Assembly (NCBI GenBank): GCA_016190175.1
Contig: JACPRC010000084.1
Span: 1-40,595 of the forward strand
Reading direction: 5' to 3'
DNA length: 40,595 bases
DNA from: Planctomycetota bacterium
Lineage (GTDB): Bacteria > Planctomycetota > MHYJ01 > JACPRB01
Positions 6,987 through 7,712 of the stretch are shown piece after piece (position 1 is the stretch's first letter; every line of letters begins with the position of its first letter). The notes below the pieces were generated by a model. The model did not search any database. It was not told the DNA's origin and saw only the letters and a list, made by a program, of their open reading frames with translations. A program made the translations under genes and the position numbers.

Positions 6987-7145
6987 TCACCGGGGACGGC
7001 GATCCGGGGACGTTCCCTTTGGCTCCTCCTGCCGCTCGACCGAGCAGGACTGCGACATTCAGGTCGGCACGCCGAGCTTCGGAAGGACGAAGATCTGCAG
7101 CACGAACCAGGCGACCACGATCCCGACGACGACGAGAATCTCCAC
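6987..7145 (-). CDS. Candidate 52-aa membrane selenoprotein (in-frame UGA)
   Basis: A GTG at 7145 with GGGAGG 7 nt upstream opens a peptide of one membrane helix, VEILVVVGIVVAWFVLQIFV, then LPKLGVPT, and meets a TGA at 7059-7061. Reading through as selenocysteine (Sec, U) gives U-MSQSCSVERQEEPKG and a hydrophilic tail to TGA 6987-6989. The nucleotides just after the UGA form a SECIS-like hairpin with a GGUC loop (see 7028-7048). Sec would sit right at the membrane exit with a Cys five residues later, a possible redox pair. It follows the DUF302 lipoprotein gene by 96 nt. If the UGA is a plain stop, the product is a 28-aa membrane peptide. No sel genes are in the window, so Sec decoding is a prediction. 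Confidence 0.55.
7028..7048 (-). promoter_or_regulatory. SECIS-like hairpin downstream of in-frame UGA
   Basis: Ten nucleotides after the UGA at 7059-7061, CCT (7048-7046) can pair with AGG (7030-7028) and GCTC (7045-7042) with GAGC (7037-7034) around a GGTC loop (7041-7038). An alternative fold is TCCTGC with GCAGGA and a bulged U. The loop GGU starts 17 nt after the UGA; in the E. coli fdhF element the loop is also GGUC and starts 18 nt after. Distance, loop and stem all match bacterial SECIS rules. Confidence 0.5.
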
Positions 7146-7241
7146 GGCTCCGCCTCCCTTCCTTGCCCGGCGTTCGTCCGTCATGCCGCGGGACCAGCTC
7201 GCCTCCCTTCGCGCGGCGGACGAGGTCGAGATCTTCGTCCG

Positions 7242-7712
7242 TCAGCGTGCCGCCTCTATCATGATCGCCTCCAGCGTCTCCTCGACCTCCCGGGCGGTCT
7301 GCTGGAGCTCTTTCGTCCCGAAGAGATCGATGAGCTTCGTCGGCCGGAGCGTCGCCAGGCGCACCCCCCCGTCCTTCGTGCGGTACGCCGAGATGCGGCA
7401 GGGGAGCGCCGTCGATATGTCGGGGTTCGCTTCGAGGACCTGTTTCGCCTTCTGCGGGTTGCACACCTCGAAGACGAGGCATTCGCCCGCGTAGTCGACG
7501 CCCTTCTCCCTCATCTTCTCCTTGAGGTCGTGGACGCCGAGGACGCCGAACTTGCGCGCCGCGCATGCCTTCGGCAGGTCCTCGCGAAGCTGCGCCAGGG
7601 ACTTCTTCGAATCGACGGCGATGAGCATGTCATGGCCCTCCATCGACGGCGGATCGCGCCGGTCCGGCGCGCACCCCGTCAGAACGAGCAGCGCCAGGCT
7701 CCATCGGGGCAT
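7242..7712 (-). CDS. DUF302-domain lipoprotein
   Basis: 156 residues. MPRWSLALLVLTGC is a lipoprotein signal with a lipobox (LTGC, Cys 14), so the protein is probably lipid-anchored in the envelope. The rest is one DUF302 domain: FGVLGVHDL, VFEVCNPQKAKQVL and ALPCRISAYRT, including the two Cys positions (CNP and LPC) that many members keep. DUF302 has no settled biochemical function and is often near redox or metal genes. GGAGG lies 6 nt before the ATG. The UGA-containing ORF 96 nt downstream may be co-transcribed. Confidence 0.85.
   Translation of the reverse strand: MPRWSLALLVLTGCAPDRRDPPSMEGHDMLIAVDSKKSLAQLREDLPKACAARKFGVLGVHDLKEKMREKGVDYAGECLVFEVCNPQKAKQVLEANPDISTALPCRISAYRTKDGGVRLATLRPTKLIDLFGTKELQQTAREVEETLEAIMIEAAR

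What the first reader, a model, noticed from the sequence alone, without database searches (positions are those of the whole stretch)
6987..7145. Candidate new small membrane selenoprotein with its own SECIS
A 28-codon membrane peptide with a strong ribosome binding site ends at a UGA, and the frame continues 23 more codons. Directly after the UGA a hairpin with a GGUC loop places the loop 17 nt downstream, almost exactly as in E. coli fdhF (18 nt). Read through, Sec stands at the membrane exit followed by MSQSC, a potential Sec-Cys redox pair. Gene callers would miss it because it is short, starts with GTG and contains a stop. The neighbour is a DUF302 lipoprotein with two Cys motifs. Seen: the ORF, the binding site and the hairpin. 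Inferred: Sec decoding.
Basis: partly seen in the sequence, partly recalled or inferred. Interest (0 to 1): 0.8.

Follow-up and report, generated by a model that had tools for sequence, protein, structure and literature searches.

The report
New tiny membrane selenoprotein family
The window encodes a roughly 52-residue, single-span membrane protein that contains selenocysteine; it belongs to an apparently undescribed selenoprotein family found in at least ten bacterial phyla, often beside sulfide- and persulfide-handling genes, and gene callers would read it as ending at the UGA.

Summary
Window 7145..6987 (minus strand) encodes MEILVVVGIVVAWFVLQIFVLPKLGVPT-U-MSQSCSVERQEEPKGTSPDRRPR. A profile with no preference at residue 29 finds 38 strong relatives in 392 genomes of the phylum: 29 carry in-frame UGA there, 9 carry Cys. 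A DNA pattern scan of named genomes gave 118 hits, all family members (111 UGA, 7 Cys), across many phyla. UGA forms occur in genomes with SelB (39/45); Cys forms mostly do not (2/15; Fisher p = 4e-7). After the UGA lies a bacterial SECIS-like hairpin, stronger than protein-preserving recodings (p = 6e-14); Cys forms show no such excess. The host genome has tRNA-Sec, SelA and a SelD with in-frame UGA; SelB was not found (64% complete MAG). No Pfam or NCBIfam model and no entry in a 2026 catalogue of 119 prokaryotic selenoprotein families resembles it. Recurrent neighbours: MBL-rhodanese, thioredoxin, TauE, type III SQR, ArsR, DsbD/CcdA, DUF302. Best functional guess (inferred): a membrane-anchored selenol/thiol pair that relays or reduces sulfane sulfur.

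The parts
6987..7145 (-). Small selenoprotein gene: 52 residues MEILVVVGIVVAWFVLQIFVLPKLGVPTUMSQSCSVERQEEPKGTSPDRRPR plus stop; single TM helix followed by LPxLGVPTUMSxxC and a hydrophilic tail
   Evidence: homologues
7059..7061 (-). In-frame UGA read as selenocysteine (residue 29)
   Evidence: aligned UGA in relatives, Cys in others:
7022..7053 (-). Putative bacterial SECIS hairpin; GGUC at 7041-7038, 17 nt after UGA; a sibling from the same family (L091) has CUGCUCGGUCGAGCGG with a GGUC loop at the same distance
   Evidence: alone not significant
7044..7046 (-). Conserved Cys codon of the UxxxxC motif (residue 34, TGC)
   Evidence: TGC/TGT at this position in 93 of 103 UGA members
7146..7159 (-). 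Purine-rich ribosome-binding stretch AGGGAGGCGGAGCC
   Evidence: sequence
7242..7712 (-). Upstream same-strand gene: DUF302 protein, probable lipoprotein (LTGC lipobox by eye); probable operon partner
   Evidence: Pfam PF03625 E=2.7e-18; DUF302 also adjacent in L075 and L112

Best explanation
Shown by comparative evidence: the gene encodes a genuine selenoprotein. SelB reads UGA at codon 29 as selenocysteine with the help of the hairpin just downstream. The product is a ~52-residue protein with one membrane helix, a conserved LP[RK]xG[VI]xTU[ML]SxxC motif and a charged tail. It belongs to a family present in at least ten phyla, with Cys versions mainly in SelB-lacking genomes. Inferred: the N-terminus is outside and the Sec/Cys tail lies at the cytoplasmic membrane face. 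Inferred: Sec29 and Cys34 form a reversible selenenylsulfide or carry sulfane sulfur (Se-S-), passing it from membrane enzymes such as SQR to cytoplasmic rhodanese/persulfide dioxygenase, with thioredoxin as reductant. Probability of real Sec decoding about 0.96; probability that it acts in sulfane-sulfur/persulfide chemistry about 0.5; the specific relay about 0.35. The confidence below is for the selenoprotein claim with a thiol/sulfur redox role in general.
For: Unconditioned profile search: 38 strong hits, every one UGA (29) or Cys (9) at residue 29. Named genomes: 111 UGA and 7 Cys members, no false positive among 118 pattern hits (that pattern itself required TGA/TGC/TGT). SelB present in 39/45 UGA genomes against 2/15 Cys genomes, p=4e-7; within family f32, G307 and G343 have UGA + SelB while G364 and the Cys genomes of genus g63 lack SelB. 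SECIS-like hairpins: mean -13.0 kcal/mol against -10.0 for synonymous recodings (p=5.6e-14), 89% with loop 16-24 nt from UGA; Cys forms show no excess (-8.95 vs -8.82, p=0.42). Host has tRNA-Sec, SelA, SelD with in-frame UGA. Cys34 codon kept in 93/103 UGA forms. Neighbours: MBL-rhodanese, Trx, TauE, SQR, ArsR, concentrated close to the gene. P-[RK] follows the helix in 101/118 members and net charge after the helix is +1.2 against -0.4 before it.
Against: SelB not found in the host MAG (64% complete). Six UGA-form genomes lack a SelB over cut-off, though two have short SelB-like fragments. Two Cys genomes do have SelB. Window hairpin alone not better than shuffles. No proteomics or 75Se data. 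Functional link rests on neighbours, seen only in a minority of loci; in the window itself the only close operon partner is DUF302. A few members lack Cys34 (L065, L075, some), so the Sec-Cys pair is not universal.
Confidence: 0.9

Rival explanations
1. The same selenoprotein is a general membrane thiol/selenol reductant (thioredoxin- or peroxiredoxin-coupled peroxide defence) and not a sulfane-sulfur carrier.
For: Thioredoxin, AhpC/TSA-redoxin and CcdA/DsbD-type genes are recurrent close neighbours.
Against: Rhodanese, MBL-rhodanese, TauE, SQR and BigR/TsoR-like ArsR neighbours point to sulfide/persulfide handling.
Confidence: 0.3
2. The UGA is a true stop: the gene is a 28-residue membrane peptide and the conserved downstream sequence is an RNA element or a separate feature.
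For: GTG-UGA is a legal short ORF; the hairpin is weak evidence in the window alone.
Against: Cys replaces UGA in homologues that continue in the same frame with the same [ML]SGxC motif; SelB partition; Cys34 codon conserved as TGC or TGT; hairpin excess only in UGA forms.
Confidence: 0.02
3. UGA is read through by another route (near-cognate Trp or Cys insertion, or UGA reassignment).
For: Only in-frame reading is directly shown.
Against: Replacements at the site are Cys, never Trp, in the unconditioned search; UGA forms track SelB and SECIS-like hairpins; UGA is also the commonest terminal stop of these genes (44 of 101), which speaks against reassignment.
Confidence: 0.02

Closest known systems
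Bacterial SelB/bSECIS-dependent selenoproteins as a class (FdhF and the 119 families of PMC13188914)
   Same: In-frame UGA, hairpin 16-37 nt downstream with G at the start of the apical loop, Cys homologues, SelB genomes
   Different: No family in that table has this motif or this build (about 50 residues, one TM helix, Sec just outside the helix); not similar to any Pfam or NCBIfam model
Sulfur-related selenoproteins TsoA/TsoB/TsoC/TsoX and rhodanese-like selenoproteins
   Same: Sulfur/thiol context, rhodanese and DsbD relatives; the ArsR-type regulator TsoR resembles one neighbour
   Different: Different Sec motifs in Table 1 (LULAxC, UxxxxU, NEPxGxxU, HSGNPxU); NCBIfam models do not match
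cst/bigR-type sulfide detoxification operons (CstB or Blh MBL-rhodanese, SQR, TauE, regulator)
   Same: In the f32 genomes the Cys form sits in the order tauE - MBL-rhodanese - small protein - SQR; one ArsR neighbour resembles BigR
   Different: Known operons (e.g. PMC5823870, PMC5480029, found and not read in full) are not described, to my knowledge, with a small selenoprotein; the window locus has only DUF302

Membership tests
Bacterial selenoprotein | In-frame UGA conserved at one aligned residue across distant homologues | tested here: met
   29 of 38 strong phylum hits and 111 named-genome hits
Bacterial selenoprotein | Cys in place of Sec in homologues | tested here: met
   9 of 38 phylum hits, 7 of 118 named hits
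[quoted passage not shown]
   90% of 102 UGA members <= -7.5 against 64% of recoded controls; window -13.9; model from PMC13188914; my scan also allowed 14-15 nt spacing
Bacterial selenoprotein | Sec machinery in the host | tested here: met
   tRNA-Sec, SelA and SelD met; SelB not found in this 64% MAG but present in all four family relatives G001-G004
Bacterial selenoprotein | Selenium in the purified product | not testable with these tools
   Needs 75Se or mass spectrometry
Known selenoprotein families (NCBIfam, Pfam, 2026 catalogue) | Match to a model or a listed motif | tested here: not met
cst/bigR-type sulfide operon component | Adjacency to MBL-rhodanese, SQR, TauE or BigR-like regulator | tested here: inconclusive
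   Met in a subset of loci (MBL-rhodanese in 19, TauE 11, SQR-like 10 of 118), not in the window (DUF302 only)

The most novel reading that the evidence does not exclude
A widespread, previously unannotated class of ~50-residue membrane-anchored selenoproteins that uses a UxxxxC pair to carry sulfane sulfur (as a selenosulfide) between membrane sulfide oxidation by SQR and cytoplasmic rhodanese/persulfide dioxygenase: a new role for selenium in reactive-sulfur handling.
Probability: 0.35. Interest if true: 0.9.

Novelty: new variant of a known kind. Interest (0 to 1): 0.84.

Why it matters
It adds an apparently undescribed selenoprotein family that spans Desulfobacterota/Geobacterales, Planctomycetota, Acidobacteriota, Spirochaetota, Verrucomicrobiota, Armatimonadota, Gemmatimonadota, Myxococcota, KSB1, Zixibacteria and others, yet would be missed because it is tiny and carries an internal UGA. 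It includes cultured hosts (Geomobilimonas luticola, Pelotalea chapellei, Thermodesulfatator autotrophicus), so 75Se labelling is feasible. It links selenium to sulfide/persulfide handling and shows that bacterial selenoproteomes remain incomplete at the microprotein end.

Tried and rejected
Folding the window hairpin alone against shuffles gave no signal, so I used family-wide recoding controls. SelB in the host MAG was not found; its hits, including the C98 frame near tRNA-Sec (TypA-like by reading, not tested), fell below cut-off. The in-frame ORF after UGA is not longer than one other frame (p=0.66 against +1), so ORF length is not used as evidence. First attempt at the recoding script failed on an empty slice and was rerun. 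Weak hits below about 35 bits were not counted. Literature searches found no description of this family; the held library lacks most subscription papers, so prior description cannot be fully excluded. Plasmid search found nothing.

Full report
WHAT IS THERE. On the minus strand a GTG ORF starts at 7145 behind AGGGAGGCGGAGCC, runs 28 codons to UGA at 7061-7059, continues 23 codons and stops at 6989-6987. Read through it is MEILVVVGIVVAWFVLQIFVLPKLGVPT-U-MSQSCSVERQEEPKGTSPDRRPR. A DUF302 gene (7712-7242, same strand; Pfam E=2.7e-18) lies 96 bp upstream; a convergent AMP-binding gene lies on the other side.

FAMILY. A search of 149 relatives with the read-through protein returned 15 further genomes with convincing homologues, all with an in-frame UGA at the same residue. 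A profile with X at residue 29, searched in 392 genomes of the phylum, gave 38 strong hits (E<=2e-8): 29 UGA and 9 Cys at that residue, nothing else. Examples: GVPTUMSGSC and GVKTUMSGSC against GIRTCMSGAC, GMKTCLSGFC, GIPTCMSGGC. Record titles include Geobacter, Desulfobacterales, Syntrophaceae, Thermodesulfatator autotrophicus, Geomobilimonas luticola, Pelotalea chapellei, Planctomycetota, Acidobacteria, Spirochaetes, Verrucomicrobia, Armatimonadota, Gemmatimonadetes, Myxococcales, KSB1, Zixibacteria and Eisenbacteria. The codon for Cys34 is TGC or TGT in 93 of 103 UGA members.

SEC MACHINERY. The host MAG (64% complete) has tRNA-Sec with anticodon TCA, SelA (568 bits) and a SelD with an in-frame UGA in its active-site region (SGGUAAKL). 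SelB was not found there but is present in all four same-family relatives. Across the tested genomes SelB over cut-off is present in 39 of 45 UGA-form and 2 of 15 Cys-form genomes, p=4e-7. The nine Cys genomes of the phylum are 99-100% complete and have only EF-Tu-sized hits. Genomes are not phylogenetically independent, so the p-value is indicative.

SECIS. For 102 UGA members the best hairpin with G in the first two loop positions averages -13.0 kcal/mol, against -10.0 when codons are recoded synonymously (Wilcoxon p=5.6e-14) and -8.7 for shuffles. The loop starts 16-24 nt after UGA in 89% of native sequences and 62% of recoded ones. Cys members show no excess (-8.95 vs -8.82, p=0.42). This fits the published bSECIS model (PMC13188914). 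In the window the GGUC starts 17 nt after UGA; the family sibling L091 has the same CUGCUCGGUCGAGCGG hairpin with a GGUC loop at the same spacing.

NEIGHBOURS. In 118 loci the recurrent neighbours are an MBL-rhodanese protein of the Blh/ETHE1 type (19 loci, usually upstream and often overlapping or within 15 bp), thioredoxin (18), TauE (11), type III SQR-like (10), ArsR (10), CcdA/DsbD (6). Pfam counts on immediate same-strand ORFs agree: Rhodanese 11, Lactamase_B 7, thioredoxin-fold families, TauE, Pyr_redox_2 7. The f32 Cys genomes show tauE - MBL-rhodanese - small protein - SQR; several are near-duplicates and one search counts them once. DUF302 also adjoins the gene in L075 and L112. No formal genome-wide background rate was computed.

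MECHANISM. Shown: selenoprotein family with Sec/Cys interchange. Inferred: P[RK] directly after the helix in 101 of 118 members and positive net charge behind it suggest N-out/C-in, so Sec29 and Cys34 would face the cytoplasm at the membrane. Given the neighbours, the most likely role is a membrane-tethered selenol/thiol pair in sulfane-sulfur relay or persulfide reduction. A general thioredoxin/peroxiredoxin-linked role is the main rival.

KNOWN OR NEW. No model in Pfam or NCBIfam (June 2026) matches any member tested above cut-off, and the 119-family table of PMC13188914 has no such motif or description. The kind (SelB-dependent selenoprotein) is known; the family, its size and its single-span build appear new. 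Prior description in papers not held here cannot be excluded.

Noticed in passing
L228 (G000:C225:19805-20722, minus): The host genome's SelD carries an in-frame UGA (MPCDIRDLASSGGUAAKL) and also an in-frame TAG a little downstream (FRQI*PRTDKD), perhaps an assembly error.
   Followed up: partly
L124 and L170: One Planctomycetales MAG (isolate clean5766) holds both a Cys form and a Sec form of the family, and has SelB.
   Followed up: partly
L084:1968 and L085:1688: Possible divergent subfamily with Sec shifted in the motif (FPKSGUGTSACSG; LGIGGGUGPTGC).
   Followed up: no
L115, L120, L145, L152, L164: Desulfobacterales-type members are followed by an ECF sigma factor at about +127 and a zf-HC2 anti-sigma-like gene at about +725, a conserved order.
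   Followed up: no
L065, L075, L112, L146, L165: Some UGA members lack the Cys five residues after Sec, so the UxxxxC pair is not universal.
   Followed up: no
L096:3651-4085: In a class relative the gene directly upstream matches YedE/TsuA (selenium or thiosulfate transporter) weakly.
   Followed up: no
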